The position numbers and the translations under genes were made by a program. Shown one piece after another: positions 1,626 to 19,949 of a stretch of 64,000 bases of DNA (position 1 is the first letter of the stretch; each line of letters begins with the position of its first letter). Source of the DNA: Devosia sp. A16 (GTDB lineage: Bacteria; Pseudomonadota; Alphaproteobacteria; Rhizobiales; Devosiaceae); NCBI RefSeq assembly GCF_001402915.1, contig NZ_CP012945.1, positions 1,002,001 to 1,066,000 on the forward strand, written 5' to 3'. The notes under the pieces are model-generated. The model was not told the DNA's origin, ran no database searches, and saw only the letters and a program-made list of their open reading frames with translations.

Positions 1626-2663
1626 TTGCCCATGACCATGACCATCAAGCTCACCGACCGGCATCGCGTCGGCGCCACCAGCCTCGAACTGCCGCCCATG
1701 GGGTTCGGCGCCGCCCATCTGGGCGGCATGTACCACCGCGTTTCCGGCGAGACCGCGCACGCAACGCTCAAGGCCGCCTGGGATGGCGGCGTGCGCTATT
1801 TCGACACCGCGCCGTTCTACGGTCGCGGCCTCAGCGAGCACCGGGTCGGCGACTTCCTCATCGACCAGCCGCGCGACCAGTTCCTGCTCACCACCAAGGT
1901 CGGCCGCTACTTCCGCCGACCGGTCGACCCTAAAACTTTCGACCGCACGCCGTGGGGCGGCGGGCTCAACATGGAGATCGTCTGGGACTATTCCTATGAT
2001 GGGGTGATGCGCGCCTATGAGCAGAGCCTGTTGCGGCTCGGCCTCGACAGCGTCGATGCGCTGCTGATCCATGACCCCGAGGCCTCGCTGGCCAGCAACC
2101 CCGATGGCCCCCGCATGGAGGACATGGTGCGCAGCGGCATCAAGGCGCTCGAGGAACTGAAGGCCTCCGGCCAGATCAAGGCCATCGGCATGGGGCTCAA
2201 CGCCGCTCCCTCGCTGATGACCTTCGCGCCGCAGGTGCCGCTCGATTTCTGCATCGTCGCCATGCCCTACACCCTGCTAGACCAGTCGGCGCTCGGCACC
2301 GGGCTGAAGCGCTGCCTCGACAACAACATCTCGGTGATCATCGGCGCGCCCTATGCCTCGGGCATCCTCGCCACCGGCCCCGGCCCCAACGCCCGCTACG
2401 GCTATGGCATCGCCTCGGAGGAGGTGCAGGACAAGGTCCGCCGCATCCAGCAGATCTGCGCCAACCACGGCGTGTCGCTGCAGGCGGCCGCACTGCAGTT
2501 CCCGCTGGCGCATCCGACGGTGGTCTCGGTGATCCCCGGCGGCGCGAGGCCGGAGGAAGTCACCAGCAATATCGCCTATCTGCAGGAGGCGATCCCGACC
2601 GCGTTCTGGGCCGAACTCCAGGCCGCGGGACTGATCGACGCGGCCGCGCCGGTGCCTGTGTGA
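1626..2663 (+). CDS. Aldo/keto reductase, D-threo-aldose 1-dehydrogenase-like
   Basis: A 345-residue aldo/keto reductase with the full catalytic tetrad: Asp60 and Tyr65 in FDTAPFYG, Lys91 in TTKVG and His149 in LLIHD. The opening GFGAAHLGGMY, the Y(D/S) segments and the length fit the subgroup that includes D-threo-aldose 1-dehydrogenase (L-fucose/D-arabinose dehydrogenase) and pyridoxal dehydrogenase. Such enzymes oxidise the aldose at C1 to the lactone with NAD(P). Here it sits downstream of the transporter ATPases and next to the D-arabinan-type locus, so D-arabinose oxidation is a reasonable inference, not shown. An alternative start is ATG 1632; neither has a clear ribosome binding site. 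Confidence 0.85.
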   Translation: MPMTMTIKLTDRHRVGATSLELPPMGFGAAHLGGMYHRVSGETAHATLKAAWDGGVRYFDTAPFYGRGLSEHRVGDFLIDQPRDQFLLTTKVGRYFRRPVDPKTFDRTPWGGGLNMEIVWDYSYDGVMRAYEQSLLRLGLDSVDALLIHDPEASLASNPDGPRMEDMVRSGIKALEELKASGQIKAIGMGLNAAPSLMTFAPQVPLDFCIVAMPYTLLDQSALGTGLKRCLDNNISVIIGAPYASGILATGPGPNARYGYGIASEEVQDKVRRIQQICANHGVSLQAAALQFPLAHPTVVSVIPGGARPEEVTSNIAYLQEAIPTAFWAELQAAGLIDAAAPVPV

Positions 2664-2926: not shown

Positions 2927-3979
2927 TCACCGCGGCGTCAGCACCGCCTTCATGATGTAGGTATTGTACGGGCCGAACTGGCTCATGACGAACCAGAACG
3001 TCAGTCCATCCGCCGAAATCCAGGACGGGGTCATGTAGGCGCCATAGGCCTGCGCATAGTCCGAACCGCGTGCCAGCACCTGCGGCGCCGACCACGGCCC
3101 TTCCGGGCGTTCGGCGAAGCGCAGCTCGATCGCCTGCGACAGCTCGTTGAGCGTCGAATACATCCAGAGCCTGATGCCGGGATTCCACACCAGCGAACCT
3201 TCGCCGACGCCGGGCTTGATCACCTCTGTCGCCTGGGCCCGGTCGCTCACCCAGCCGCTGCCGTCGAAATACTCCCAGGCTTTGGTGTCGAGCACCTTGT
3301 CGGCGGCGACACGGCCGACCCGCGCGCCCGAGAACCGCCCGCAGGGCGTGCCGATGGCATAGACATACTTGCCGCCCTCGTTGCCCAGTCCTGGCTGGGC
3401 CGAGAGCGCCAGCATGTTGAAGCTCGACTTGAAGCTGCCGAACTCGTCGGGGCCGGGGCTCCAGGTCTTGCCGCCATCCGTCGACGAGATGAAGCGCGAC
3501 CAGTTGCACAGCCACACGCCACCCATCGAGGAGAAGCCGTTCACCGACATGTAGTGCAGGTAAAGCGTATCGCCGACCGTCACCAGGGCGGTCGGGATCT
3601 TGGTCTGCTCACCCTTGAACGCCTCCTGGTGCGCGCCCCTGGCGATCTCCACTGCCTTGCCGTCTTCGCCCCTAACCCAGTCGTCGATGACGATGCCATC
3701 CGAGGCATCGTGGTCCGCCGTGAAGGCGAGAACATTGGAGCGCCAGTTCGGCCCGAAGCGGATGCAGGCATTGTCGTTCCAGCCGAAGGTGTCGCCGAAG
3801 GCGAGAACGATCTTGCCGTCGATCTCGGCCATGGTGCCAAGATCGGTGCCGCAGATGTCGGGGCCTTTCATCGGCGCCGGTGCGTTGGGTCCGGTGAGGG
3901 CTTTCACCTTTTCGGAAGTGACGCTGTAGTCGGTGGCGAGGGCTGGGGTGATGGCGGAGAGCAGGGTCAGAGCCGCCAT
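2927..3979 (-). CDS. Exported DUF4185 protein, GH183-type endo-D-arabinanase candidate
   Basis: From ATG 3979 the product is 350 residues with a cleavable signal sequence (MAALTLLSAITPALA). The mature part is one DUF4185 domain, with the early acidic motif FGDTFGWNDN near residue 61 and repeated aromatic strands suggesting a beta-propeller. DUF4185 includes CAZy family GH183, reported as endo-D-arabinanases that cut mycobacterial arabinogalactan and lipoarabinomannan. As the only exported hydrolase of this operon it would make oligosaccharides for the transporters. The frame stays open to an ATG at 4156 that overlaps the upstream stop (ATGA), but that extension runs through palindromic repeat copy 2 and puts the signal sequence in the middle. 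GTG 4009 is another possible start. The start is therefore uncertain; the family call is good, the exact activity inferred. Confidence 0.82.
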   Translation of the reverse strand: MAALTLLSAITPALATDYSVTSEKVKALTGPNAPAPMKGPDICGTDLGTMAEIDGKIVLAFGDTFGWNDNACIRFGPNWRSNVLAFTADHDASDGIVIDDWVRGEDGKAVEIARGAHQEAFKGEQTKIPTALVTVGDTLYLHYMSVNGFSSMGGVWLCNWSRFISSTDGGKTWSPGPDEFGSFKSSFNMLALSAQPGLGNEGGKYVYAIGTPCGRFSGARVGRVAADKVLDTKAWEYFDGSGWVSDRAQATEVIKPGVGEGSLVWNPGIRLWMYSTLNELSQAIELRFAERPEGPWSAPQVLARGSDYAQAYGAYMTPSWISADGLTFWFVMSQFGPYNTYIMKAVLTPR

Positions 3980-4000
3980 CAGGCTCCGTGCGGAAAGAGC

Positions 4001-4105
4001 ACCCCCCACCCTGTCCCTCCCCCGCAAGGGGGGAGGAGACGCCAACACTGACGCCGGTGAGGGCGTCTCCCTCCCCCTTGCGGGGAGGGGACAGGGGTGG
4101 GGGTA
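4001..4105. repeat. Large palindromic repeat, copy 2 (in the 5' region of the DUF4185 gene)
   Basis: Two facing arms: CCCACCCTGTCCCTCCCCCG on the left and its complement around 4080-4104 on the right, each with a core CTCCCCCTTGCGGGGAG-type palindrome. They enclose a short centre. It sits between the ATPase stop (4153) and the probable DUF4185 start (3979) and keeps the DUF4185 frame open. In mRNA it would form a large hairpin just before the signal-peptide codons. Confidence 0.85.
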
Positions 4106-4152
4106 TTCTTCCCGCGCCGGCCCGTCAGTCACATCGCTCCAACGCATCAGCA

Positions 4153-5271
<1,119 letters not shown>

Positions 5272-5273
5272 CG

Positions 5274-7841
5274 TCAGCCTCCCAGCGTCAGGTCTGCGGT
5301 GTCACCCGCGCCAAGCCTGCGGTCGATACGGGCGGTGCTGCCGGCAAAGCTCAGCGTCGCGAGGTCGAGCTTGCCATAGCGCACTTCGAGACGGACCCGG
5401 TTGCCGCTGCGGCTCACCACCCCCCAGCCCTCGCCCACCGACCAGAACCAGCTGCCATCGCCGCTGTCCTTCGGCGCAAAGCCGATTTCGCCCTTGGTGA
5501 GGTCGTAGCTGAAGCCGGACCAGGCATTGACCAGCGCGAAGCTCGACATCGAGCGGGCATAGTAGCTGCCGCACTCGATCTCGTTCCACGGGTTGCGCCG
5601 ATGCCCGTCATGACGGGCCCGCGCCGTGCGGACAATGCTGAGCCCTTCCTCGGTGAGGCCGCGATAGATCAGGTGCGAAGCGAGCATGTATTCGAGCCCG
5701 GTCCACACCTCTTCCGAATAGGGCGCCGGCACCGCCGGCTTGGTGGTGCCCTCGGGCCAGGTGGCGATCAGCACGCCGCCTTCGTCCTCATAGGCATAGA
5801 CCCGGCAGGGGTTGAAGTGCCCCTTGAGGTCGGGCCGGTAGTTGTGGCGATAGGCCGAGGCGAGCGCCGTCTTCACCTTGTCCGGGTCGAGGAAGCTGCC
5901 GAGCCCGGCGAGGTCGGCATGCCACTGCCCGAGGATCTGGTCGGTCGCGCAGCCGTCGTTGAACTGGTACTTCATTTCGCCGTACTCGTCCGACCAGTAC
6001 GTTTCCATGAAGCCGTCGGCGATCACCCCGACCTTACCCACGGCATGGTCGAACTTCTCGATCAGCGCCTTGTCGCCGAGATCGGTCTTCTGGATGAAGT
6101 AGTCGCCGTTGAAAAGCTCGCGATTGAGGTAGTCGGCGCCCGCCTGCCCCATCCGGTCGAGCTCGGCGGCAAACTTCGAATCCCCCGCCGCACGGCCCAT
6201 TTCGGCGCCGGCCTTCAGCGCCGCCACATACATGGTCGAGAGCCAGGAGTTGGGCCCGAACAGCTCCATGTCGAGCGTGTGGTGCTGCCGGCCCCAGAGG
6301 ATGCCGGTCCGCTCCGGATCCCACTGGTCCGGATTGTCGGCCGACCAGGCATATTCGAGCGCGGCGCGCACCTTGGGCCAGTAACGCTTCAGCCAGTCGG
6401 TATCGCCTGAAATCTTCCAGTCCCGATAGGTCTTGATGATCGAGCCGAACTGGCCGTCGGCACAGGGGTTCAAGGGAAAGAAGGCCGAACCGAGCGGGAT
6501 GATTTGCCGGAAGGTCAGCCCGCCATTGGGCAGCTGGTTATAGGTGTAGTCGGTCTCCCGCAGCGTCCGCTCGAGCCCCGGGAACAGGTAGGGCAGCGTC
6601 TGCTGGTAGTTCCACACATGCGTGCACGAACCCTCGCAGCTGCCCTCGTTGGTGAACTGGCCTTCCCAGGCCCAGAGCTCGCCATTCTCGAGCCGCAGCA
6701 CCGTCGCGGTGCGGAGGATGCTCATCGTGCCCTGCACAGCATCGATGATGTCGACCGGCAGCGAAGTGCCGAACAGCGTGTCGCGGAAAGCGAAGGTCGG
6801 AGCGCGGAGCTCATCCCAGCGCGCGAAGGCTTCGGCCAGCACGGCAGCGGAGTTCTGCCACTGACTGGCATAGTAGTTGCGCCAGGTGCCGGTCTCGCCA
6901 TCGACGGCGTTGGGCCGCCAGTAGACCTGCCCGACCGGAAAGTGCCAGCTGATGGCAAAGCGGATGGTCCTGCTCTCCCCCGGCGCCACCGTGACACGGG
7001 CGGCGAGCGTGCCGTGCTCGGGTTGGTCGAACATGTTGCGGTTGAGCCGCGGCTTGTCGTAGTGCCGCTCGGGCAACCGGCCCGCCCGCGCGAACTCGCG
7101 CCAGAACAGGTTGAGATCGTCGAACCACTGGCCACGAAAGTGATAGTCGAGATGGTCGACATCTTCGGCATCGGTGGCGATCGAGACGTCGCCCGTCTGC
7201 CAGTCGGGCAGCTCGTCCGCAGCCGTCAGCAGCAGCGTCTTCACCCCGCCCGCCTCGGCATAGCTGTGCCGGCCGTTCTGGCAGCCATGGTTCCCGAGCG
7301 TGCCGCCGATGGTGTAGTCGACAGGCACGGTGCCGGTATTGGTCACCTCGATTTCGAACATCGCCGCCGGCAGCGAGGAATCGCGCTCATTGGTCGGAAT
7401 GAACGGGCTCCAGGCGGTGAGCTTCACCGTACCGGGGAACGTCGCGTCATGGAACGCCACCTCGGCCACCGGGAAGGTGCCGGTGAAGGTCGTCGCCTCG
7501 AAATGCGGTACGCCCGCCAGCGTATTGCGGTTGGCGCCCCAGCCGAAGCCGTCGAAGAATTTCCGCGTCGTCGGCGATCCCGTCGGCAACCCTTCATAGG
7601 GCCCGTTGAGCACCCGCGCATCGAGCAGCTCGCCCCCGGCCTCGGCCTTGATGGCGAAGTGGCTGTAGCCGTTGAAGCTCTGCAGCCCGGGCCGGTTGCG
7701 GATCGACCAGTCGACCAGCCGGCCGCTGCCCGAGAGCGCGAGGCCACCGGCACCGATGCCGCCGAGCGGGAAAGCGATGTGGCGCGCGCGGTCGCCTTCG
7801 TAGGTGAAACGCTTGTCGGTGTTGGTCATCTGAAAATCCAT
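5274..7841 (-). CDS. GH116 glycoside hydrolase (DUF608 family)
   Basis: An 855-residue GH116 enzyme. The N-terminal beta-sandwich domain opens with the family motif AFPLGGIGAGGLALSGSG (residues 23-40). The C-terminal (alpha/alpha)6 catalytic domain starts near residue 370. By analogy with characterised GH116 enzymes the nucleophile is probably Glu403 in CEGSCTHVWNY and the acid/base Asp634 in TDQILGQWH. No signal peptide is seen, so it should be cytoplasmic and act on imported oligosaccharides. GH116 is known for beta-glucosidase, glucosylceramidase, beta-xylosidase and an exo-beta-D-arabinofuranosidase. The DUF4185 and GH172 neighbours favour the last, as an inference. Start may be ATG 7841 or 7829; it lies three bases after the permease gene. 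Confidence 0.9.
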   Translation of the reverse strand: MDFQMTNTDKRFTYEGDRARHIAFPLGGIGAGGLALSGSGRLVDWSIRNRPGLQSFNGYSHFAIKAEAGGELLDARVLNGPYEGLPTGSPTTRKFFDGFGWGANRNTLAGVPHFEATTFTGTFPVAEVAFHDATFPGTVKLTAWSPFIPTNERDSSLPAAMFEIEVTNTGTVPVDYTIGGTLGNHGCQNGRHSYAEAGGVKTLLLTAADELPDWQTGDVSIATDAEDVDHLDYHFRGQWFDDLNLFWREFARAGRLPERHYDKPRLNRNMFDQPEHGTLAARVTVAPGESRTIRFAISWHFPVGQVYWRPNAVDGETGTWRNYYASQWQNSAAVLAEAFARWDELRAPTFAFRDTLFGTSLPVDIIDAVQGTMSILRTATVLRLENGELWAWEGQFTNEGSCEGSCTHVWNYQQTLPYLFPGLERTLRETDYTYNQLPNGGLTFRQIIPLGSAFFPLNPCADGQFGSIIKTYRDWKISGDTDWLKRYWPKVRAALEYAWSADNPDQWDPERTGILWGRQHHTLDMELFGPNSWLSTMYVAALKAGAEMGRAAGDSKFAAELDRMGQAGADYLNRELFNGDYFIQKTDLGDKALIEKFDHAVGKVGVIADGFMETYWSDEYGEMKYQFNDGCATDQILGQWHADLAGLGSFLDPDKVKTALASAYRHNYRPDLKGHFNPCRVYAYEDEGGVLIATWPEGTTKPAVPAPYSEEVWTGLEYMLASHLIYRGLTEEGLSIVRTARARHDGHRRNPWNEIECGSYYARSMSSFALVNAWSGFSYDLTKGEIGFAPKDSGDGSWFWSVGEGWGVVSRSGNRVRLEVRYGKLDLATLSFAGSTARIDRRLGAGDTADLTLGG

Positions 7842-7844
7842 GGG

Positions 7845-8699
7845 TCAGGCCCGGATGCCTGAGAAGGTGACGCCCTCGATCACCATCTTCTGGGCGACGA
7901 GGAAGAGGAGAACGACGGGGAGGATGGCCATGCTCATGGCGGCCATCACCACCGAGAGGTTGCCCTGGCTCATGTAGCCGCGCAGCAGGTCCATCGCGAT
8001 CGGCAGGGTCATCGAATCCTGCGAGGTGATCAGCGCCCGCGGCTGGAAATAGGCGTTCCACGCCCCGGTGAAGGTGATGATGGCAAGCGCCCCGAGGGCC
8101 GGCATCAGCTGCGGCAGCGAGATGCGCCAGAAGATCTTGAAGTAGCCGGCGCCATCCATCAGCGCCGCTTCCTCCAGCTCCTTGGGTTGCGAGCGCAGGA
8201 ACTGGCGCAGCATGAACACCCCGAAGCTCGAGGTCAGCCCCATCAGCACCAGGCCCAGCGGGTTGTTGAGCAGCCCGAGCTTGGCATAGCCCAGGTAGAT
8301 CGGCAGGATCGTCACCTGCGCCGGGAACATCAGCCCGATCAGCATGACGAAGAACAGGCTGTCGCGGCCGGGGAACCTGAGCCGTGCATAGGCAAAGGCG
8401 GCGAGCGTGCAGGTGACGAGCTGGCCGATGGTTACCAGCACCGCCACATAGAGGCTGTTCCAGTAGATTTTCAGGAACGGCACCGACGAGGCCAGCACGG
8501 TCTGATAGTTGCTGACATCGAAGCTGGGCGGAAAGAAGCTCGGCGGCATCTTGTAGGCCTCGGCCGCCGGCCGGAACGACATCGAGAACAGCCAGAAGAA
8601 CGGCATCAGCATCAGGATGCCCATCAGCAGCAGCACCGCGATGATGGCGCGATCGACCCATTTCTTGGCTTCGCGGGTCTGCATGGATCTGGTCTGCAT
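7845..8699 (-). CDS. Sugar ABC transporter permease, MalG type
   Basis: A 284-residue inner-membrane permease with six predicted membrane segments. The cytoplasmic EAA loop (KELEEAALMDGAGYFKIFWRI) that docks with the ATPase lies around residues 175-195. The N-terminal segment ILMLMPFFWLFSMSFRP is typical of MalG-type CUT1 permeases. It pairs with the MalF-type permease four bases upstream and is followed by the GH116 gene after three bases, so it is in mid-operon. The first codons repeat a short phrase (MQTRSMQTR), so translation may begin at the second ATG, 8684. Substrate is probably an oligosaccharide that the GH116 enzyme then cuts. Confidence 0.93.
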   Translation of the reverse strand: MQTRSMQTREAKKWVDRAIIAVLLLMGILMLMPFFWLFSMSFRPAAEAYKMPPSFFPPSFDVSNYQTVLASSVPFLKIYWNSLYVAVLVTIGQLVTCTLAAFAYARLRFPGRDSLFFVMLIGLMFPAQVTILPIYLGYAKLGLLNNPLGLVLMGLTSSFGVFMLRQFLRSQPKELEEAALMDGAGYFKIFWRISLPQLMPALGALAIITFTGAWNAYFQPRALITSQDSMTLPIAMDLLRGYMSQGNLSVVMAAMSMAILPVVLLFLVAQKMVIEGVTFSGIRA

Positions 8700-8703
8700 G
8701 GCC

Positions 8704-9738
8704 CTACTCCCGCACCCAACGGCGCGAGCCGATGATCTGGATGATGGTGATGATGAGCACGAGGATCATCATGATGACGCTGACCGCGGCGGCATAGCCG
8801 AGCTCGAAGCTGCCGAACGCCTCGTCGACCAGGTAGATCGACAGCGAGCGGGTGGAATCGCCCGGGCCGCCGCCGGTGAGGATCATGATCGACTCGAACA
8901 CCTGCAGCGCCCCGATCGAGGCGAACACGATGCAGAAGAACAGCACCGGCGAAATGAACGGCAGCGTGATGCGGCTGAACCGCCGCCAGGGCGAGGCGCC
9001 GTCCATCGATGCCGCATCCATGATCGGCTTGGGCACGCCCTGCAGCGCCGCAATCAGGATGATCATGAAGAAGCCGGTGTTCTTCCACACATCCATGATG
9101 ACGATCGAGGTCATCGCGAATTTCGATGAGCTGAGCCACGGCACCTGCCCGATGCCGAGCTGGGCCAGGTAGTAATTGATGACGCCGAAATCGACGCTGT
9201 AGAAATAGCTCCACACCACCGCCACAAACGCCGCCGAGATGATCACCGGCAGGAAGAAGGCAAGGCGGAAGAAGTAGAGCAGCACCGTCGGCATCGCCCG
9301 GTTCAGCGCCAGCGCCAGGATCAGCCCGACCGCCACGTTGAAGCTCACCGCGAGGAAGGCGAAACGCAGCGTGTTCCAGAAGATCTCGAGCGAGCGCGGC
9401 TCGGTGAGGAAGCGCACATAGTTCTCGAACCCCACCCAGTCGGCGCCGAAGCTGATGTCGTAATAGGTGAAGCTGAGGATGATGGTGATGGCGACCGGCG
9501 CCAGGACGAACGCCGCATAGAGCACGATCGAGGGCAGGACGAAGACGTAGCCCGCCTGCATCTGCGCCTTGCGGAGGTCGGAAATCCTGCGCTTGCGGCC
9601 ACCCCCACCCTTGATCCCTCCCCACAAGGGGGAGGGAGACGCAGGAACCGAAGCAGTGGTGCCGTCGCCTCCCTCCCCCTTGTGGGGAGGGACTGAGGGT
9701 GGGGGTGGCCCCAAGCGCGATGGTTCAGATTGATGCAT
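8704..9738 (-). CDS. Sugar ABC transporter permease, MalF type, with repeat-encoded N terminus
   Basis: The 344-residue frame encodes a MalF-type permease. Membrane segments begin at AGYVFVLPSIVLYAAFVLAP and an EAA loop (DAASMDGASPWRRFSRITLP) is present. The unusual part is residues 10-46, rich in Pro, Gly and Ser, which are translated from palindromic repeat copy 3 (9597-9710). After the repeat there is no good start codon before the first membrane segment: the only ATG there is immediately next to it. ATG 9738, with GAGAAG about nine bases upstream, is the best start. So the repeat is probably translated as a cytoplasmic N-terminal tail. It lies between the binding-protein gene and the second permease in the GH116 operon. 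Confidence 0.9.
   Translation of the reverse strand: MHQSEPSRLGPPPPSVPPHKGEGGDGTTASVPASPSPLWGGIKGGGGRKRRISDLRKAQMQAGYVFVLPSIVLYAAFVLAPVAITIILSFTYYDISFGADWVGFENYVRFLTEPRSLEIFWNTLRFAFLAVSFNVAVGLILALALNRAMPTVLLYFFRLAFFLPVIISAAFVAVVWSYFYSVDFGVINYYLAQLGIGQVPWLSSSKFAMTSIVIMDVWKNTGFFMIILIAALQGVPKPIMDAASMDGASPWRRFSRITLPFISPVLFFCIVFASIGALQVFESIMILTGGGPGDSTRSLSIYLVDEAFGSFELGYAAAVSVIMMILVLIITIIQIIGSRRWVRE
9597..9710. repeat. Large palindromic repeat, copy 3 (within a permease reading frame)
   Basis: A near-perfect inverted repeat: outer arms GGCCACCCCCACCC and GGGTGGGGGTGGCC, inner palindromes CCTCCCCACAAGGGGGAGG and CCTCCCCCTTGTGGGGAGG. The centre is about 35 bases. It falls inside the open frame of the MalF-type permease and keeps that frame open. 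Confidence 0.87.
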
Positions 9739-9818
9739 CCGCGAACTTCTCGGTTTGATACCAGGAGAAATGCCCGCGCCGCACCCGAAGGTTACGGCGC
9801 GGGCAGTCCGGGGGAGGA

Positions 9819-11072
9819 CTACTGGGTGACGCGCTTGATGCGCTCGAACGAGCGGGTCAGTTCCTGGTCCGCCTTGGCGACGGCATCGGGAATGGTCATC
9901 TCGTCGGTCATGATGGCGTTGAAATAGCGCATGAAGATCTGGTCGACTTCCTGGAAGTTGGCCGGCGACGGCACCGCATGCGTGGTCGGCAGCGTCTCGT
10001 AGTAGAGCGGTGCCGAGGGCGGGAACTTGAGGAAATTCTCGGTCTCCGCCGCCGACTTGCGGCCCGGCACGGCGCCGCCCAGGTCACCTTCGGCGACCTG
10101 CGTCTCGTAGCTCAGGAGTTCGGTGACCAGGGCTTCGGCGAGCTTGACGTTCTTGGCCTTGGAGGAAATGCCATAGGCGCCGAAACCGATGACCGTATCG
10201 TTGTTCACCTTGCCCGGCTGCACCGCGATATCCATGTCGAGCTTCGACGCAATGGCGTTCTGCACGATCCAGTGGCCGCGCGAGATCATGGCGATCTGGC
10301 CGGCGAAAAACTGGTTCTCGACGCCCTCCTGCCCCGGCACCGGCGAGACCTTCTTGACGTGCACCAGGTCGTAGAGGAACTGCAGCGTCTCGGCGACCTT
10401 GGGGTCCTTCATGTTGGAAGCCGACCAGTCGGCCGTGACCGGCGAGGTGCCGTTCGAGAGGAACCACGGCATCAGCCCGAAGAAGAAGGCCGGCACTTCA
10501 TAGCCGAACTGGGTGACGTTGCCGTTGGCATCGCGCTTGGTCAGCTTCTCGGCAATGGCGGCGAACTCGTCCCACGTCCAGGTCTTGCTGGGCGTTTCGA
10601 TACCGGCCTCGGCGAAGAGCGCGCGGTTGTAGTTCGTCATGATGTTGTTCCAGGTCGAGGGGATGAAATAGGTCTTCCCCTTGTACTTGGTCAGGTCGAA
10701 CAGCTTGGCGTCGAAGTCGGAGAAATCGCCCGAGGCGATGAAGTCGTCGAGGGGCAGGAACAGGTCGCGCGCCGCAAAGCTCTGCAGCGTCTCGACCGCC
10801 GTGTGATAGACGTCATACTGCTCGCCGGCATTGTACTGCTGCAGCACGCGCGAGACGAAATCGCCCCAGCCGCCGCCCACCGCATCGACGCCGATCTCGA
10901 CCTCGACATTGGGGTATTTCTGGTTGAAGCGGGCCACCGCGTCCTGCGTCGACTTGAGCTGCGCCTCGCCGCCGAAGGTCATCAGCCTCAGCTTCCCGGC
11001 TTCGTCGGACTGGGCCAGCGCCGGTGACACCAGCCCGGCCGTGAGCAGCAGAGCCGCCAGCAATTTCTTCAT
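9819..11072 (-). CDS. Sugar ABC transporter substrate-binding protein (extracellular, family 1)
   Basis: A 417-residue periplasmic binding protein. It starts at ATG 11072 directly after GGAGGGACGAG and opens with a Sec signal peptide (MKKLLAALLLTAGLVSPALA). The mature part begins with the usual strand-helix pattern LRLMTFGG...QDAVARFNQKYPNVEVE of MalE-like family 1 proteins. The frame stays open upstream to 11165 but has no second signal. It is the first gene of the operon that continues with two permeases, GH116, the ATPase and DUF4185, and is divergent from the LacI regulator at 11362. It likely captures the oligosaccharides released by the exported enzyme. Confidence 0.94.
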   Translation of the reverse strand: MKKLLAALLLTAGLVSPALAQSDEAGKLRLMTFGGEAQLKSTQDAVARFNQKYPNVEVEIGVDAVGGGWGDFVSRVLQQYNAGEQYDVYHTAVETLQSFAARDLFLPLDDFIASGDFSDFDAKLFDLTKYKGKTYFIPSTWNNIMTNYNRALFAEAGIETPSKTWTWDEFAAIAEKLTKRDANGNVTQFGYEVPAFFFGLMPWFLSNGTSPVTADWSASNMKDPKVAETLQFLYDLVHVKKVSPVPGQEGVENQFFAGQIAMISRGHWIVQNAIASKLDMDIAVQPGKVNNDTVIGFGAYGISSKAKNVKLAEALVTELLSYETQVAEGDLGGAVPGRKSAAETENFLKFPPSAPLYYETLPTTHAVPSPANFQEVDQIFMRYFNAIMTDEMTIPDAVAKADQELTRSFERIKRVTQ

Positions 11073-11289
11073 CTCGTCCCTCCTCTGTCCGGCGTTTCGA
11101 CAAAGCTTCGCCGGCGCTGGATCACGGCATTTTCGCCGCGTCCCGTGTTGAAAAGCCGCCCGCACTCGGAAAGCCGCCCAAATCCGGCGTCCGATCTCAG
11201 AGTGCTGTGATTACACCTTTGTTTTTGTTCAGGTATTTCTCCCGCCGCGGGGTGATCCCCGTCTTCTGGCGGATGCGACCGTAACAGTT

Positions 11290-11324
11290 GTGAATGGATT
11301 TGCAAATGCATTCACAAATCCATT
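11290..11324. promoter_or_regulatory. Palindromic operator candidate upstream of LacI gene
   Basis: Bases 11290-11315 form a 26-base palindrome centred on TTTGCAAA with one mismatched pair. It begins with GTGAATG and ends with CATTCAC. Overlapping it, AATGGATTTG (11293-11302) and CAAATCCATT (11315-11324) form a second, 10-base perfect inverted repeat. The cluster lies 38 bases before the LacI start, in the divergent gap to the binding-protein gene. LacI-family proteins bind such palindromes, so this is a likely auto-regulatory and operon operator. Binding is inferred. Confidence 0.6.
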
Positions 11325-11361
11325 TGCATGCATCTTTCGTTTGGTGCTAGCCGTTGCCGCC

Positions 11362-12366
11362 ATGAGCACGATCTCCAAGGTTGCCGAACGGGCGGGGGTG
11401 TCGCGGACCACGGTCTCGCACGTCATCAACCACGCCAATCGGGTGTCCAAGCCGCTGCGCGAAAAGGTGCAGGCGGCAATCGACGAGCTCGGCTATTCGC
11501 CCAACCCGCAGGCCAAGAGCCTGAGGACCGGGCGCACCAACCTCATCGCCATGCTGATCCCCGATATCGGCAACCCGTTCTACACCGAGATGGTGAAGGC
11601 GGCGCAGGCGGCGCTCGAGGAAGCCGGGCTCGATGCGCTGATCTACAATACCGACGTGCCGGGCGGAAACTGGCAGACGCATGGCCGCGATTACCTGCGC
11701 CAGCTCAACCGCAAACGCGTCGATGGGCTGCTCGTCGGCGATTTCGCGCTGCACGGCATCACCGAGGAACTGCTCAAGCTCGATACGCCCACGGTGTTCA
11801 TCGGCCACCTCGCCAACCAGGCCGTCGACAGCGTCAAGATCGACGATTTCGGCGGCGGCTACATGGTGGGCGAGCACCTGGCACGGCAGGGCCACAAGCA
11901 CGTGGTGCAGGTGACCGGCCCGGAATTCTTCGACTCCGCCATGGCGCGCGCCGATGGCTTCGAGCAGGCGCTCAAGGACAACAAGGTCCGCTTCACCCGG
12001 AAGCAGCGCTACCACGGCAGCTACCTGCCGCCTTCCGGCCGCGAGGCGGCGCAGTGGATTGCGAGCCTCACCGGCTCCGACAAGCCCAGCGCCGTGTTCG
12101 TCGGCAATTACCTGATGGCGATGGGCCTTCTGGCCGAGTTCCACGACCAGGGGGTTCGCGTCCCCCAGGACATCGCCGTCGCCATTTTCGGCGACCTGCC
12201 GCAGCTCGAATATGTGAGGCCCAACCTCACCCGGGCTGGCGAGAATCCCGGCGCGCTGGCGAGGCGTGCCGTGGAAATGCTGCTCGAACGCCTCAACGGC
12301 AAGTTCGACGGGCCGCCGCGCACCGAGGTCATTCCCTGTGCGCTGCGCATCTTCGAGTCGGCCTAG
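11362..12366 (+). CDS. LacI-family transcriptional regulator
   Basis: A 334-residue LacI/GalR regulator. The N terminus MSTISKVAERAGVSRTTVSHVINHA is the usual helix-turn-helix, followed by the hinge (PNPQAKSLRTGRT) and a periplasmic-binding-protein-like sugar-sensing domain. ATG 11362 puts the helix-turn-helix at the very N terminus, as expected; the longer frame from 11290 would run through the operator. It is divergent from the GH116 operon and upstream of the second transporter with the GH172 gene, so it probably controls both. The effector is likely a sugar released from the imported substrate. Confidence 0.93.
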   Translation: MSTISKVAERAGVSRTTVSHVINHANRVSKPLREKVQAAIDELGYSPNPQAKSLRTGRTNLIAMLIPDIGNPFYTEMVKAAQAALEEAGLDALIYNTDVPGGNWQTHGRDYLRQLNRKRVDGLLVGDFALHGITEELLKLDTPTVFIGHLANQAVDSVKIDDFGGGYMVGEHLARQGHKHVVQVTGPEFFDSAMARADGFEQALKDNKVRFTRKQRYHGSYLPPSGREAAQWIASLTGSDKPSAVFVGNYLMAMGLLAEFHDQGVRVPQDIAVAIFGDLPQLEYVRPNLTRAGENPGALARRAVEMLLERLNGKFDGPPRTEVIPCALRIFESA

Positions 12367-12449
12367 CCGACCAGGACAAACTTGACGCGGCCGTTTCGGG
12401 GGAGGTGGCCGGTCCGGACGACAACACCAAAACTCCAGGGAGGAGTGAG

Positions 12450-13790
12450 ATGACCACTACGTCCAACATGCCGTCGGGATGGTCCCGCCGGTCGATCCTC
12501 AAGGGCGGCGCCGCACTCGGCGCAGCCGGCCTCACCATGCCCTTCATGGGCCAGGCGTTCGCCCAGGACAACACCCTCAGCTTCTGGCAGTTCTATGCGC
12601 CGGGCGGCGACGTGAAGCCGCAGGTCGACTGGTTCGTCAAGATGGTGGCCGACTGGAACGCCACCCAGTCCGAACAGGTGGCGCTCGAATATGTGGTGGG
12701 CTCCGAATATATCGGCGGCACCAAGCTCGCGACCTCCTTCGCCTCGGGCCAGGGCCCGGACATCTTCATCATCTCGCCCGGCGATTTCCTGCGTTACTAC
12801 AATGGCGGCGTGCTGCAGGACCTGACTCCGGCGATCGAGGAAGCGGCGCGCGCCGATTTCCCCGAGAGCGTCATCGCCAACCGGATGGTCGACGGCAAGA
12901 TCTACGGCGTGCCGATGGAAGTCGAGCCGATGGCCTTCTACTACTCGGTCAAGGCCTTCGAGGAGGCCGGGCTCAACGAGAACGACGTGCCCCAGTCCTG
13001 GGACCAGTTGCTCGAAATCGGCAAGAAGCTGACCACCGCCGAACGCTATGGCGTGCTGTTCGAGACCAACCCCGGCTACTACCAGAACTTCACCTGGTAC
13101 CCCTTCATGTGGCAGGGCGGCGGCGAGTTCCAGTCGGCAGAGGGCAAGTCGGCCTTCGACTCCCCCGCGACGGTCCAGGCGCTGAAGCTCTGGCAGGATG
13201 CGGTCAACTCCGGCGCCGCACCGCGCCAGATGCTCGGCGGCGGCGGCGGCGACATCGTCGCCAACCTGGGCTCGGGCTACTGCGCCATGCAGAATGTCGG
13301 CATCTGGGGCATCTCGGCGATGGACAACAACGCCCCCGACGTTCCCTACGGCATCTTCAAGCTGCCGGTGCCGACCGGCGGCAAATACGTCACCGTCGGT
13401 GGCGGCTGGGCCTTCGTCGCCAATTCCAAGGGCAAGAACCCGGAAGCGGCGGCCAAGTTCATCGCCTGGGCGCTCGCCTCGATGGCGCCGGATTCGGTTC
13501 AGCGCGTCGTCGACTGGTGTACGGTGGCCAAGTCCGACATGCCGCCGCGCAACTCGGCGCTGACGGCCGGCGGCGATGCCTTCAACAAGGGCAATATGGG
13601 GATCTTCGGCACCCAGATCCATCCCGGCACCCGGGCCGAACCGCGGGTGCCGCCGGAGGTCTACAAGATCATCTCCGACGCCATCCAGCAGACCCAGCTC
13701 GGCGGCGCCGACCCGCAGGCGACGGCTACCGCCGCCAGCCAGCAGCTCGACGCCTTCCTCGCCTCCTATAGCGGCGCGCCGATCCTGTGA
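12450..13790 (+). CDS. Sugar ABC transporter substrate-binding protein, Tat-exported
   Basis: A 446-residue family 1 binding protein. ATG 12450 follows GGGAGGAGTGAG closely. The N terminus has a twin-arginine signal (SRRSILKGGAALGAAG) ending at AFAQD, so it is probably exported folded. The mature protein has the typical extended-sugar site layout. It comes 83 bases after the LacI gene and before two permeases and the GH172 gene. No ATPase is encoded in this operon, so it may share the UgpC-type ATPase at 4153-5271. Confidence 0.94.
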   Translation: MTTTSNMPSGWSRRSILKGGAALGAAGLTMPFMGQAFAQDNTLSFWQFYAPGGDVKPQVDWFVKMVADWNATQSEQVALEYVVGSEYIGGTKLATSFASGQGPDIFIISPGDFLRYYNGGVLQDLTPAIEEAARADFPESVIANRMVDGKIYGVPMEVEPMAFYYSVKAFEEAGLNENDVPQSWDQLLEIGKKLTTAERYGVLFETNPGYYQNFTWYPFMWQGGGEFQSAEGKSAFDSPATVQALKLWQDAVNSGAAPRQMLGGGGGDIVANLGSGYCAMQNVGIWGISAMDNNAPDVPYGIFKLPVPTGGKYVTVGGGWAFVANSKGKNPEAAAKFIAWALASMAPDSVQRVVDWCTVAKSDMPPRNSALTAGGDAFNKGNMGIFGTQIHPGTRAEPRVPPEVYKIISDAIQQTQLGGADPQATATAASQQLDAFLASYSGAPIL

Positions 13791-13820
13791 CGGCATCGAT
13801 GACGGCTATGCGCACCTCTT

Positions 13821-13979
13821 GCCTTCTCCCCTTGTGGGAGAAGGTGGCGCGCAGCGCCGGATGAGGGGGCCGCGTAACGAAGTGTAGCGCGCTCGGAGCA
13901 TAGCGACGAGCGACCGAGTGCGCGGAGAGAACCCCTCATCCGCCCTTCGGGCACCTTCTCCCACAAGGGGGAGAAGGCG
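13821..13979. repeat. Large palindromic repeat, copy 4
   Basis: It fills most of the gap between the binding-protein gene and the first permease. The core palindrome here is CCTTCTCCCCTTGTGGGAGAAGG, seen on the left at 13822-13844 and inverted near 13954-13977. Between them are the matching ATGAGGGG/CCCCTCAT arms and a central GCGCTCGG/CCGAGTGCGC hairpin. A large hairpin placed behind a binding-protein gene could stabilise that part of the message, as REP elements do behind malE in E. coli. Confidence 0.85.
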
Positions 13980-14055
13980 TCCGGCTCAAATGCCAGTGCC
14001 TCATCAAATGCGATTGACTCTCCTCCGTGGAGGGGAGCCAACCAAGGATAGACCA

Positions 14056-14994
14056 GTGACCGAAATCACCACCACGGCGGCGGGCGGCAGGCCGGCTGCC
14101 ATCCGGCTCACCACGAAGCAGCGCGAGGCCATTGCCGGCGTGCTGTTCGTCGCACCCGACGCCATCGGCCTGATGCTGTTCATCGGCCTGCCGATGCTGC
14201 TGGCGCTCGGCATTTCGGTGTTCGAGGTCGACGGCTTCGGCGGCTTCAAGTTCGTCGGGCTCGCCAACTATTCGAAGATGTGGGTCGACCCGCTGTTCTG
14301 GTCGTCGCTGCGCGTCACCGCGCAGTTCACCGTCATGCTGGTGCCCCTGCTCTACGTCACCGGCCTCGGTCTCGCGCTGCTGGTGCAGCGGACCAGCAAG
14401 TTCAACACCATCATGCGTTCGATGTTCTTCGCCCCGCAGATGGTCAGCCTCGTCGTCGTGGCGCTGGTCTGGCAGCTGATGGTGGTCGACAAGCTCGGCG
14501 TGCTCACCCGCTTTGCCGCTTCGATCGGGCTGGGCGGCATCTCGTTCCTCGGCGATCCGAACCTGGCGCTGTTCACCGTAACGCTCGCCGCGGTGTGGTT
14601 CCTGATGGGCTTTTACATGCTGATCTTCCTCGGCGGCCTGCAGGACATCCCCAAGGAATATTACGAGGCGGCGCGCATCGATGGCGCCAGCGCCACCCAG
14701 AGCTTCTGGTTCATCACCCTGCCGCTGCTGCGGCCCACCAGCTTCTTCGTGCTGCTGGTCTCGGCCGTCGCCGCCATCACCGGCGCGCAGGCCTTCGACC
14801 TGATCTACGTGATGACCCGCGGCGGGCCGGCGAACTCGACGGCGCTTCTCATCAGCTACATCTACCAGCAGGCCTTCCAGTATTCCGCCTTCGGCTATGC
14901 CGCGGCGCTGGCGACGCTGCTCGTCGTGCTGCTGATGGCGGTCACGGTGTTCTTCTTCCTCCTCACCCGCGGCGGACGGTTCGACTATGAGTGA
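14056..14994 (+). CDS. Sugar ABC transporter permease, MalF type
   Basis: A 312-residue CUT1 permease. GTG 14056 with AAGGA seven bases upstream is the best start; the longer open frame runs back through the palindromic repeat. Membrane segments start at GVLFVAPDAIGLMLFIGLP, and the EAA loop (YYEAARIDGASATQSFWFI) lies in the last third. It is the second gene of the GH172 operon and forms a heterodimer with the MalG-type permease at 15217. It probably transports an oligosaccharide that GH172 then degrades. Confidence 0.93.
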   Translation: MTEITTTAAGGRPAAIRLTTKQREAIAGVLFVAPDAIGLMLFIGLPMLLALGISVFEVDGFGGFKFVGLANYSKMWVDPLFWSSLRVTAQFTVMLVPLLYVTGLGLALLVQRTSKFNTIMRSMFFAPQMVSLVVVALVWQLMVVDKLGVLTRFAASIGLGGISFLGDPNLALFTVTLAAVWFLMGFYMLIFLGGLQDIPKEYYEAARIDGASATQSFWFITLPLLRPTSFFVLLVSAVAAITGAQAFDLIYVMTRGGPANSTALLISYIYQQAFQYSAFGYAAALATLLVVLLMAVTVFFFLLTRGGRFDYE

Positions 14995-15063
14995 TTTCGC
15001 GACGACGCTTCGGTTGATGGCACACGGCCGCAACGCCGCTGACAGGCCGGTGCGGGAAACGTA

Positions 15064-15166
15064 CCCCCTCCCCTGTCCCCTCCCCGCAAGGGGGAGGGAG
15101 ACGCAAACTCCGACGCCAGTGTTTTGGTCTCCTCCCCCCTTGCGGGGGAGGGACAGGGTGGGGGGT
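15064..15166. repeat. Large palindromic repeat, copy 5
   Basis: Lies in the 222-base gap between two permease genes of the same operon. Arms CCCCCTCCCCTGTCCCCTCC and the complementary GGGACAGGGTGGGGGG run inward to the core palindromes CCTCCCCGCAAGGGGGAGG and CTCCCCCCTTGCGGGGGAG. The centre is about 30 bases. Within the transcript it would separate the two permease coding regions. Confidence 0.85.
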
Positions 15167-15216
15167 CCTCTGTGCGTGCCGAACCATCCCCACGCCCCGC
15201 ACCTGAGAGCAACCCC

Positions 15217-16050
15217 ATGAGCAACCTCTCCCGTTCGCAGGCGAACGTCGTCCGGCTGGTCTGGATGCTGGTGACAGTGGTGCTTGCGGTGATGGCGATC
15301 TTCCCGCTGCTCTACATGCTGTCGATCGCCTTCAAGGGCCCGACCGAGGTGTTCAAGTCGAACCTGATTCCTACGAAGCCCGTGCTCGACAACTTCGTCT
15401 ACGTACTGACCGAGGTGCCGTTCTGGCGCTACCTGATCAACACCTTCGTCATCTCGGCGGTGGTGACGGTGGTCGCCTTGTTCTTCCACACCATGGCCGG
15501 CTACGCCCTGGCGCGGCTGAAGTTCCCGGGGCGCGAGGTGGTGTTCCTCGCCATGTTCTCGACGTTCCTGGTGTCGCTGCCGGTGATCATCGTTCCGCTG
15601 TTCATCCTGGTGCGCTCGATGGGCATGCTGAACTCCTATGCCGGGCTGATCATCCCGGCGATCTTCAACGCCTTCGGCATCTTCCTCCTCCGCCAGTACT
15701 ACCTGTCGCTGCCCAAGGAACTGGAGGAGGCCGCGGTGATCGACGGCGCCGGCTACTGGCGCATCTACACCAGCGTCATCCTGCCGCTCAGCCGGCCGAT
15801 CATCGCGGCGCTGGCCATCCTGTTCTTCCTCGCCAACTGGAATTCGTTCCTGTGGCCCCTCACCGTCGCCTCCGACCCGAACCTCTGGGTCGTGCAGGTG
15901 GCCATCGCCAACTTCAAGAGCCAGTACGCCGCCAGCTGGAACTACACCATGGCCGCCTCGACCATCGTCGCGGTGCCGATGCTGGTGCTGTTCGTGATCT
16001 TCCAGCGCCAGATCATGGACTCGATCAAGACCTCCGGCCTCAAGGGCTGA
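15217..16050 (+). CDS. Sugar ABC transporter permease, MalG type
   Basis: A 277-residue permease starting at ATG 15217 (MSNLSRSQAN). It has six predicted membrane segments and the EAA loop KELEEAAVIDGAGYWRIYTS. The frame is open upstream through the repeat, but those codons are repeat sequence and a conserved-length MalG-type protein starts here. It completes the second sugar transporter of the locus and is followed 30 bases later by the GH172 gene. Confidence 0.93.
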   Translation: MSNLSRSQANVVRLVWMLVTVVLAVMAIFPLLYMLSIAFKGPTEVFKSNLIPTKPVLDNFVYVLTEVPFWRYLINTFVISAVVTVVALFFHTMAGYALARLKFPGREVVFLAMFSTFLVSLPVIIVPLFILVRSMGMLNSYAGLIIPAIFNAFGIFLLRQYYLSLPKELEEAAVIDGAGYWRIYTSVILPLSRPIIAALAILFFLANWNSFLWPLTVASDPNLWVVQVAIANFKSQYAASWNYTMAASTIVAVPMLVLFVIFQRQIMDSIKTSGLKG

Positions 16051-16080
16051 ACCACCCCCTCCTCACCAACGGATTTCGAC

Positions 16081-17211
16081 ATGACTGCTTTCAACGGCTT
16101 AGGCGTCAACCTCTCGAACCTCTATCGGCTGTCCCCGGCCAAGACCCGCTCGATCTCGCCCGAGAACTTCACCGGCGAGAAGGGCAGGGGCGGCATGGCC
16201 ATCGAAGGCACCGGCGCGGTGCACGCCAAGGGGCTCGGCCCCAATGGCAACGGCCAGGGCTGGAAGGTTTCGCCCTCGATCCGGATCGAGCCGGGCGAGA
16301 CCCGCGTCCTCGCCGACATCAAGGGCATGGGCGCCATCCAGCAGATCTGGCTGACCACGGCGAACCTGCGCTGGCGCAGCCTGATCATCCGCATGTGGTG
16401 GGACGACCAGGAGAACCCCTCGGTCGAGGCGCCGCTCGGCGACTTCTTCTGCATGGGCTGGGGCCAGTTCGCCCAGATCAACTCGCTCGCCGTCTGCGTG
16501 AACCCCGGCCGCGCCTTCAACTGCTACTGGGAAATGCCGTTCCGCAAGGCGGCCCGCATCGAGATCGAGAACACCGATCCCGACGATTTCGGCATCATCT
16601 ACTACCAGGTCAACTACACCCTGACCGAGGTGCCCGAGGACGCCGCCTATTTCCACGCCAAGTTCCGCCGCACCAACCCCCTGCCCTACGGCACCGACTA
16701 CACCATTCTCGACGGCATCAAGGGTCGAGGCCACTATGTCGGAACCTACATGGCCTGGGGCGTGAACAATTCCGGCTGGTGGGGCGAAGGCGAGATCAAG
16801 TTCTTCATGGATGGGGACAAGGAGTTCCCCACCATCTGCGGCACCGGTACGGAGGACTATTTCTGCGGCGCCTATAACTTCGACGGCGGCGTGGTCGATG
16901 CCACCATGGACAGCCGCTATCGCGAGTTCTCCACCCCCTATGCCGGCCTGCCGCAGGTGCTTCGGCCCGACGGCACCTATCGCAGCCAGACCCGCTTCGG
17001 CATGTATCGCTGGCACCTCAATGACCCGATCCGCTTCGAGAGCGACCTCAAGGTCACCATCCAGGCACTGGGCTGGCGCACCGAGAACCGCAACACCCGC
17101 CGCTACCTGCCGCTGCAGGACGACATCGCGTCCGTCGCCTTCTGGTACCAGACCCTGCCGACCGCCCCGTTCGAGGCGCTGCCCGGTCGGGATTATCTCG
17201 AGGTGATCTGA
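16081..17211 (+). CDS. GH172 (DUF2961) glycoside hydrolase, exo-D-arabinofuranosidase candidate
   Basis: A 376-residue protein covered by one DUF2961 domain, CAZy family GH172. The family hallmark CGTGTEDYFCGAY is at residues 253-265, and an upstream acidic strand WWGEGEIKFF at 233-242. Two glutamates in these motifs (236 or 238, and 258) match the catalytic pair described for this family. Known GH172 activities are alpha-D-fructofuranosidase/difructose dianhydride I synthase and exo-alpha-D-arabinofuranosidase. No signal peptide is present, so it should act in the cytoplasm on sugars imported by the two transporters. Its neighbours, DUF4185 and GH116, favour D-arabinofuranoside as substrate. 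Confidence 0.88.
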   Translation: MTAFNGLGVNLSNLYRLSPAKTRSISPENFTGEKGRGGMAIEGTGAVHAKGLGPNGNGQGWKVSPSIRIEPGETRVLADIKGMGAIQQIWLTTANLRWRSLIIRMWWDDQENPSVEAPLGDFFCMGWGQFAQINSLAVCVNPGRAFNCYWEMPFRKAARIEIENTDPDDFGIIYYQVNYTLTEVPEDAAYFHAKFRRTNPLPYGTDYTILDGIKGRGHYVGTYMAWGVNNSGWWGEGEIKFFMDGDKEFPTICGTGTEDYFCGAYNFDGGVVDATMDSRYREFSTPYAGLPQVLRPDGTYRSQTRFGMYRWHLNDPIRFESDLKVTIQALGWRTENRNTRRYLPLQDDIASVAFWYQTLPTAPFEALPGRDYLEVI

Positions 17212-19792: not shown

Positions 19793-19852
19793 GACGTCTC
19801 CGGCAGGTTCGGCAGAGCATTAGCAGCCCCGATGCCCCGGCGGCAACACGGC

Positions 19853-19869
19853 TGCTAAACTCATTAGCA
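19853..19869. promoter_or_regulatory. LacI operator candidate O1
   Basis: The 17-base sequence TGCTAA-N5-TTAGCA is a perfect inverted repeat of two six-base half-sites. It shares the GCTAA/TTAGC half-sites with O2 at 19919-19934. A further single half-site GCATTAGCA is at 19817-19825. All lie between the divergent LacI and GH2 genes, so they are probably bound by that LacI protein. Confidence 0.6.
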
Positions 19870-19918
19870 TTCCGAACATCTTGCCAGGCTGAAACAAAGC
19901 CGCTAGCCATGACGGCCT

Positions 19919-19934
19919 GCTAATAATTATTAGC
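19919..19934. promoter_or_regulatory. LacI operator candidate O2
   Basis: GCTAATAATTATTAGC is a perfect 16-base palindrome ending 15 bases before the GH2 ATG at 19950. A weak promoter-like pair, TTGCCA at 19881 and TAGCCA at 19904 with 17 bases between, would place the transcription start at about O2. A repressor bound here would block transcription of the GH2 gene directly. The promoter assignment is inference. Confidence 0.65.
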
Positions 19935-19949
19935 GTGAGGGAGAAAGAG

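What the first reader, a model, noticed from the sequence alone, without database searches (positions are those of the whole stretch)
2927..17211. Candidate D-arabinan utilisation locus in a Gram-negative bacterium
Three enzyme families reported for cleavage of mycobacterial D-arabinan are gathered around one LacI regulator: an exported DUF4185 (GH183-type, endo), a cytoplasmic GH172 (exo-alpha-D-arabinofuranosidase members) and a cytoplasmic GH116 (a member with exo-beta-D-arabinofuranosidase activity is known). Two ABC importers complete the path from outside to inside. Each family also has other activities; it is the combination that points to D-arabinan. I know of no description of such a locus outside actinobacteria and Bacteroidota. 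Seen: gene families, order, signal peptide on only one enzyme. Inferred: substrate and pathway.
Basis: partly seen in the sequence, partly recalled or inferred. Interest (0 to 1): 0.9.

Follow-up and report, generated by a model that had tools for sequence, protein, structure and literature searches.

The report
Devosia gene set for eating D-arabinan
A Gram-negative bacterium of the genus Devosia carries a compact gene set predicted to cut up, import and digest D-arabinan, a sugar polymer best known from the cell walls of tuberculosis-related bacteria; the pathway is known from other bacterial groups, so the host and the two-importer layout are what is new.

Summary
An exported GH183 (DUF4185), a cytoplasmic GH116 and a cytoplasmic GH172 lie with two ABC importers and one MalK-type ATPase around a LacI regulator in a Devosia chromosome. 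The nearest solved structure of each enzyme is the matching D-arabinan enzyme of Microbacterium arabinogalactanolyticum; for GH116 and GH172 it beats glucosidase and difructose-dianhydride relatives by about 350 and 290 bits. Catalytic and most substrate-choosing residues are kept. The layout recurs in 7 of 8 Devosia genomes with GH183 (the eighth is fragmented); no full-length GH183 was found in other sampled Pseudomonadota genomes. A conserved palindromic array before LacI is a likely operator. Limits: no activity is shown; the close GH172 clade is spread over many phyla with no GH183 seen nearby. The source need not be mycobacteria: one Devosia is reported to make a capsular D-arabinan, and D-arabinofuranose-donor gene sets occur in 4 of 61 sampled relatives and on a Tateyamaria plasmid near a DUF4185 gene. 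This genome lacks DprE1, so it looks like a consumer; its beta-specific GH116 favours beta-capped, mycobacterial-type arabinan. D-arabinose breakdown may use a neighbouring oxidative gene set.

The parts
2927..4009 (-). GH183 (DUF4185), predicted exported endo-D-arabinanase; the open frame runs to 4156 through an intergenic repeat, likely start GTG 4009 or ATG 3979
4153..5271 (-). UgpC/MalK-type ABC ATPase, the only ATPase of the locus, perhaps shared by both importers (inferred)
5274..7841 (-). GH116, predicted cytoplasmic exo-beta-D-arabinofuranosidase (ExoMA2-like; Glu393, His408, Arg445, Asp524)
7845..8699 (-). ABC permease A2
8704..9738 (-). ABC permease A1 (true start likely downstream of 9738; the ORF's 5' end reads repeat-like sequence)
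   Evidence: synteny; the protein itself was not scanned against Pfam; repeat-like 5' end read by eye
9819..11072 (-). Solute-binding protein A with Sec-type signal (ORF to 11165)
11294..11328 (.). Candidate LacI operator array, GGATTTGCAAATGC at 11296-11309 plus partial repeats
11362..12366 (+). LacI-family regulator (ORF from 11290)
12450..13790 (+). Solute-binding protein B, twin-arginine-type signal (TAT_signal 20.8 bits, under its cut-off 22.7)
13918..14994 (+). ABC permease B1 (start likely downstream)
15217..16050 (+). ABC permease B2 (ORF from 15124)
   Evidence: synteny; start; not scanned against Pfam
16081..17211 (+). GH172 (DUF2961), predicted cytoplasmic exo-alpha-D-arabinofuranosidase (ExoMA1-like; Glu236, Glu258, Asn266)
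1626..2663 (+). Neighbouring aldo-keto reductase, nearest solved relatives L-galactose dehydrogenases; candidate D-arabinose dehydrogenase, not a fixed member of the locus

Best explanation
This is a D-arabinan utilisation locus. GH183 is exported and cuts alpha-D-arabinofuranan chains outside the cytoplasm. Two ABC importers carry the fragments in, one encoded with GH116 and GH183, the other with GH172. In the cytoplasm GH116 removes beta-D-arabinofuranosyl ends and GH172 removes alpha-D-arabinofuranosyl residues, giving D-arabinose. A LacI protein bound to an ATTTGCAAAT array between the divergent operons would release them when an arabinan sugar is present. D-arabinose is then perhaps oxidised by the neighbouring aldo-keto reductase and a lactonase-like enzyme encoded upstream of the window. 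The likeliest source is beta-capped arabinogalactan or lipoarabinomannan of Mycobacteriales living nearby. Shown: gene content, homology, residues, synteny, operator conservation. Inferred: activities, substrate, regulation, catabolic route, source.
For: Best PDB match of each enzyme is the corresponding D-arabinan enzyme. GH183 nucleophile, acid/base, third acid, its arginine partner and Tyr293 kept in 8 of 8 Devosia orthologues; GH116 Glu431/His446/Arg483/Asp557 equivalents kept in 12 of 12 homologues compared; GH172 Asn253 equivalent kept. Synteny in 7 of 8 GH183-bearing genus genomes. ATTTGCAAAT exact before LacI in 10 of 12 loci compared. One signal-bearing endo-enzyme, exo-enzymes without signal and ABC import match the pathway proposed for Microbacterium (PMC10509167).
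Against: No activity shown. The GH172 clade that holds the window protein spreads over many phyla, with GH183 matched in 0 of the 80 fetched loci (one of which, L081, ends before its GH183), and 11 of 81 members lack the Asn. The four GH116 residues are also kept in homologues away from GH183, so they do not single out D-arabinan loci. No outer-membrane transporter among the genes scanned; the genome was not searched for one. No fucose-isomerase-type enzyme and no kinase in the locus, unlike Microbacterium. Devosia submarina makes an alpha-only D-arabinan, so the source could be Gram-negative.
Confidence: 0.72

Rival explanations
1. The locus is a D-arabinan consumer, but its main food is D-arabinan made by Gram-negative neighbours, including other Devosia and relatives, rather than by Mycobacteriales.
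For: Devosia submarina makes a capsular ->2)-alpha-D-Araf-(1->5)-alpha-D-Araf-(1-> polymer. UbiA-DprE1-DprE2 sets lie in 4 of 61 sampled relatives, two of the same family. A Tateyamaria plasmid has such a set near a DUF4185 gene.
Against: The D. submarina polymer has no beta-linked residue for the GH116 enzyme. The DprE1 proteins stay under the NCBIfam cut-off (362-417 bits, cut-off 500), so donor synthesis is itself inferred.
Confidence: 0.2
2. Turnover of the cell's own D-arabinan.
For: A member of the genus makes such a polymer.
Against: No DprE1-like protein in this genome or the 18 other genus genomes: best genus scores are about 54 bits, over one domain, against 362-396 in the four carriers. 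A LacI and two importers fit feeding better than wall turnover. A route without DprE1 is not excluded.
Confidence: 0.05
3. The three enzymes act on another furanoside, and the D-arabinan families meet here by shared ancestry rather than shared substrate.
For: The GH172 clade is widespread with mixed neighbours, and 11 of 81 members lack the Asn that makes ExoMA1 arabinose-specific. A 63%-identical GH116 paralogue with its own importer lies elsewhere in the genome without GH183.
Against: The DUF4185 constructs that gave soluble protein in PMC10115798 had endo-D-arabinanase activity, and all three families meet here with the D-arabinan residues kept.
Confidence: 0.1

Closest known systems
D-arabinan utilisation locus of Microbacterium arabinogalactanolyticum, Actinobacteria (PMC10509167)
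   Same: GH183 with signal, GH172 and GH116 without signal, ABC import; nearest characterised relative of each enzyme
   Different: Gram-negative host; one GH183 instead of several; two importers, each encoded with an exo-enzyme; LacI with a conserved array; no isomerase or kinase in the locus
D-arabinan PUL of Dysgonomonas gadei, Bacteroidota (PMC10115798)
   Same: GH183 endo-enzymes with GH172, and a putative GH116, in a Gram-negative
   Different: Here ABC importers carry the fragments; the only solved D. gadei GH172 found (8ah3) is far from the window GH172 (134 bits against 437 for ExoMA1)
Tateyamaria omphalii plasmid cluster with DUF4185 and DprE1/DprE2/UbiA/GtrA-like genes (L163)
   Same: A DUF4185 protein with the same catalytic residues in an alphaproteobacterium
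   Different: That gene sits among donor-synthesis and glycosyltransferase genes, not importers and exo-hydrolases
GH172 alphaFFase1 of Bifidobacterium dentium (difructose dianhydride I)
   Same: GH172 fold family
   Different: 143 bits against 437 for ExoMA1; Gly instead of Asn at the specificity position; other side of the tree

Membership tests
GH183 (DUF4185) endo-D-arabinanase | Domain match over the curated cut-off | tested here: met
   257.8 bits, cut-off 39.5
GH183 (DUF4185) endo-D-arabinanase | Asp33 nucleophile, Asp51 acid/base, Glu243 and Arg198 of EndoMA1 | tested here: met
   window Asp105, Asp122, Glu319, Arg274; Tyr293 kept as Tyr371; Trp138 is Phe208
GH183 (DUF4185) endo-D-arabinanase | Five-bladed beta-propeller | tested here: inconclusive
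   model of mean pLDDT 55.6 from 8 sequences, too poor for a fold search
GH183 (DUF4185) endo-D-arabinanase | Endo-cleavage of D-arabinan | not testable with these tools
   needs an enzyme assay
GH172 exo-alpha-D-arabinofuranosidase (ExoMA1 type) | Closer to ExoMA1 than to alphaFFase1 | tested here: met
   437 against 143 bits; 100/99 branch, with long-branch warnings
GH172 exo-alpha-D-arabinofuranosidase (ExoMA1 type) | Asn253 that blocks fructofuranosides | tested here: met
   window Asn266; 70 of 81 in the wider clade
GH116 subfamily 4 exo-beta-D-arabinofuranosidase | Closer to ExoMA2 than to subfamily 1 beta-glucosidase | tested here: met
   429 against 81 bits; no GH116 tree was built
GH116 subfamily 4 exo-beta-D-arabinofuranosidase | Glu431, Asp557, His446, Arg483 of ExoMA2 | tested here: met
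   window Glu393, Asp524, His408, Arg445, by the alignments with a chain numbering offset of 4,
D-arabinan utilisation locus, ABC type | GH183, GH172, GH116 and ABC importer genes together | tested here: met
D-arabinan utilisation locus, ABC type | D-arabinose isomerase and kinase in the locus, as proposed for Microbacterium | tested here: not met
   none among the locus genes scanned; no Fucose_iso_C match in the genome; seven FGGY_N matches elsewhere
D-arabinan utilisation locus, ABC type | Induction by D-arabinan | not testable with these tools
   needs growth and expression experiments

The most novel reading that the evidence does not exclude
D-arabinofuranan is a common, largely overlooked glycan of Gram-negative bacteria. 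Alphaproteobacteria such as Devosia submarina, and perhaps the carriers of the UbiA-DprE1-DprE2 sets seen here, make it; Devosia loci like this one, together with a GH172 clade spread over many phyla, consume it. The mycobacterial polymer would be one case of a wider D-arabinan economy, and this locus a consumer built from two separable modules: an alpha module (LacI, importer, GH172) and a beta/endo module (importer, GH116, ATPase, GH183).
Probability: 0.25. Interest if true: 0.8.

Novelty: new variant of a known kind. Interest (0 to 1): 0.58.

Why it matters
If right, it extends D-arabinan consumption with an endo-enzyme and both kinds of exo-enzyme to Pseudomonadota, gives a distant second set of enzymes for mapping arabinogalactan and lipoarabinomannan, and supplies a LacI with a candidate operator that might become a D-arabinan sensor. 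It also makes an ecological question testable: do Devosia feed on the walls of Mycobacteriales or on the capsules of their own relatives?

Tried and rejected
Self-recycling of an own arabinan: no DprE1-like protein in this genome or the 18 other genus genomes by protein search (33 of 61 genomes have some match, but only 4 are strong, 280-410 bits; the next is 54) or by profile (61 of 61 have some match, 0 reach the cut-off of 500; the same 4 score 362-396, the next 71; 10 of 14 control genomes match, 1 over the cut-off). Spread in the phylum: in 398 genomes of the phylum only the own genome is over the PF13810 cut-off, with 3 weak others; in 385 of the class 3 are over it, two of them weak and partial (G151 53.7 bits, G183 47 bits), with 3 weaker still; the samples overlap. 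A regulon beyond the locus: the operator pattern has two exact places in the genome, and the second is a lone site; with one mismatch there are 9 places against 3 for the backward control, and with two mismatches the window holds 4 against 3.34 expected, so only the exact array is informative. Of the one-mismatch sites I looked at two. Aldo-keto reductase as a fixed member: rejected, since it lies beside the block only in the own genome and G017, and 2.3 kb away in G011, though a 40-42% relative lies near GH172 in 3 of 80 loci and a lactonase relative in 2 of 80. Structure of GH183: model too poor, so no fold search was made. GH116 tree: not built. The neighbours of the wide GH172 clade gave no common theme in the 10 proteins scanned. 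Of seven FGGY_N proteins, six were named.
Full report
What is there. The window lies in a one-contig genome of 5,032,994 bases. The nearest named GH172 found is 98% identical, in Devosia sp. Root413D1, so I take the host to be a Devosia. Two divergent operons flank about 290 bases. Leftward: solute-binding protein A, two permeases, GH116, a UgpC/MalK-type ATPase, GH183. Rightward: LacI, solute-binding protein B, two permeases, GH172.

What the enzymes are. Against the PDB chains the GH183 protein finds only the endo-D-arabinanase EndoMA1 with significance (8hhv 145 bits, E 2e-41, and its mutant 8ic1; the two other rows have E 1.8). GH116 finds the exo-beta-D-arabinofuranosidase ExoMA2 (8ic6/8ic7, 429 bits) well ahead of GH116 beta-glucosidase (81 bits). 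GH172 finds the exo-alpha-D-arabinofuranosidase ExoMA1 (8ic8, 437 bits) ahead of 4kq7 (153), alphaFFase1 (143) and 8ah3 (134). I read the two crystal-structure sections and the discussion of PMC10509167 and compared the residues named there. In GH183 the nucleophile, acid/base, third acid, its arginine partner and Tyr293 are kept and Trp138 is Phe, alike in 8 of 8 Devosia orthologues. In GH116 Glu431, Asp557, His446 and Arg483 are kept; the paper gives the last two as the key difference from beta-glucosidase. They are kept in 12 of 12 homologues compared, including ones with no GH183 nearby, so they speak for subfamily 4 rather than for D-arabinan loci alone. In GH172 Asn253 is kept where alphaFFase1 has Gly299. 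A GH172 tree of 28 proteins puts the window protein on the ExoMA1 side of a 100/99 branch from alphaFFase1; the tool warned of long branches, ExoMA1's among them, and of an unsettled bootstrap.

How firm the unit is. PF13810 is over its cut-off in 8 of the 19 genus genomes held and in 0 of the 42 other sampled genomes of the family and order, two of which show weak partial matches; a protein search of the 19 gives the same 8 full-length matches. In 7 of the 8, importer A, GH116, ATPase and GH183 stand beside LacI and GH172; G004 lacks importer B; G003 has the genes on separate contigs. G014, a fragmented genome, has a 94%-identical partial GH116 without GH183. Genes beyond GH183 differ between species. 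The alpha part alone (LacI, importer B, GH172) occurs in G009, G013, G024, G035 and a Bauldia MAG, and a paralogous beta part (solute-binding protein, permeases, GH116 of 63% identity, ATPase) at 1,166,892 in the own genome beside another LacI-type gene. So the locus looks like two modules joined, each with its own importer.

Regulation. An array built on ATTTGCAAAT lies at 11294-11328, about 35 bases before the LacI start. The ten-base core is exact in 10 of 12 loci compared, with one mismatch in G015 and two in G013; loci with the alpha module alone have it too. In the whole genome the 14-base pattern is matched exactly here and at one lone site; with one mismatch there are 9 places against 3 for the control. 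With two mismatches the window shows no excess (4 against 3.34 expected). That the LacI binds the array is inference.

After hydrolysis. No Fucose_iso_C protein was found in the genome, which speaks against an isomerase of that family. Seven FGGY_N matches lie elsewhere; of six scanned, one is over the cut-off for FGGY pentulose kinases, so a kinase route with another isomerase stays possible. Beside the locus stands an aldo-keto reductase whose nearest solved relatives are L-galactose dehydrogenases (114 bits), and upstream of the window a Dpp-type importer, an amidohydrolase distantly like L-fucono-1,5-lactonase (87 bits, cut-off 400) and an L-rhamnose-mutarotase-like gene (81.5 bits, cut-off 99.6). 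D-arabinose, L-fucose and L-galactose share their C2-C4 configuration (recalled), so an oxidative route is plausible but unproven.

Whose arabinan? PMC8707391 (first of four parts of the text read, passages) reports that Devosia submarina makes a ->2)-alpha-D-Araf-(1->5)-alpha-D-Araf-(1-> polysaccharide. Sets of UbiA, DprE1 and DprE2 relatives, the expected donor pathway (passages of PMC11127046), occur in 4 of 61 sampled genomes, two of the same family, and DprE1 in 0 of 19 Devosia genomes; none of these proteins reaches the NCBIfam DprE1 cut-off. A Tateyamaria plasmid has such a set (DprE1-like 417 bits, cut-off 500; DprE2-like 200, cut-off 250) near a DUF4185 gene. So Gram-negative D-arabinan exists and is a possible food. 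Against it as the main food, the reported polymer is alpha-only, while terminal beta-linked Araf is attributed to mycobacterial arabinogalactan in the passages. I keep both sources open and favour beta-capped, mycobacterial-type arabinan.

Limits. In that clade 70 of 81 proteins, the window's included, have the Asn. So the GH172 clade is broader than GH183-bearing loci, and I know of no assayed member inside it. No outer-membrane transporter is evident among the genes scanned; the genome was not searched for one. In the plasmid collection GH183 relatives are at most 34% identical (15 records, mostly Rhodococcus), so no close donor of the gene was seen.

Literature. Searches for D-arabinan with DUF4185/DUF2961, GH183/GH172/GH116, Devosia with arabinofuranos, D-arabinan with Proteobacteria, GH172 and DUF4185 in the held open library showed, from titles and abstracts and the sections read, no description of such a locus in Pseudomonadota. 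PMC10115798 (sections 14, 15 and 19 and passages) mentions an active Myxococcus DUF4185 enzyme and DUF4185 plus GH172 genes in M. amalyticus. Subscription papers and supplements were not searched.

Verdict.

Noticed in passing
window 3990-4130 and 15029-15178, and many places in the genome: An intergenic repeat, readable as protein on both strands, fills the 5' end of the GH183 ORF and lies between permeases B1 and B2; one search gives 91 matches in this genome (the gene included), 78 in G011 and 92 in G012, with candidates capped.
   Followed up: partly
L163 (Tateyamaria omphalii plasmid pDOK1-4-1), 5070-20771: DprE2-, DprE1-, GtrA- and UbiA-like genes, a TMEM260-like protein and a DUF4185 gene together: a possible D-arabinan synthesis cluster that includes its own endo-D-arabinanase.
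   Followed up: partly
L199, L200, L201, L202: UbiA-, DprE1- and DprE2-like gene sets in four Hyphomicrobiales-type relatives (two of the same family): possible makers of D-arabinofuranose glycans.
   Followed up: partly
L075 5144-13545 (genome 1,162,143-1,170,544): A second GH116 module (63% identical GH116, own importer and ATPase, another LacI-type gene, palindrome ACGAAACGTTTCGA) without GH183 or GH172.
   Followed up: partly
L073 5300-13424 and L019 1717-2730: Extra GH172 paralogues (32%) in two Devosia genomes; the one in G010 groups with alphaFFase1 and lies beside a 34% GH116 and importer genes, perhaps an alpha-fructofuranoside locus (long branches).
   Followed up: no
L024 9245-10541 (G035): A weak partial DUF4185 match (32.6 bits) stands next to a second LacI that is 65% identical to the window's, about 21 kb from that genome's GH172 module.
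   Followed up: no
window 18773-31676: Beside the locus: a second LacI, a GH2 protein, a GGDEF protein, a Dpp-type importer and a UxuA (mannonate dehydratase) gene, perhaps for glucuronides.
   Followed up: no
L081-L160: The GH172 clade of the window protein, 64-98% identical, spans Chloroflexota, Latescibacterota, Armatimonadota, Planctomycetota, Bradyrhizobium and others with no GH183 seen near it: a widespread group without an assayed member known to me.
   Followed up: partly
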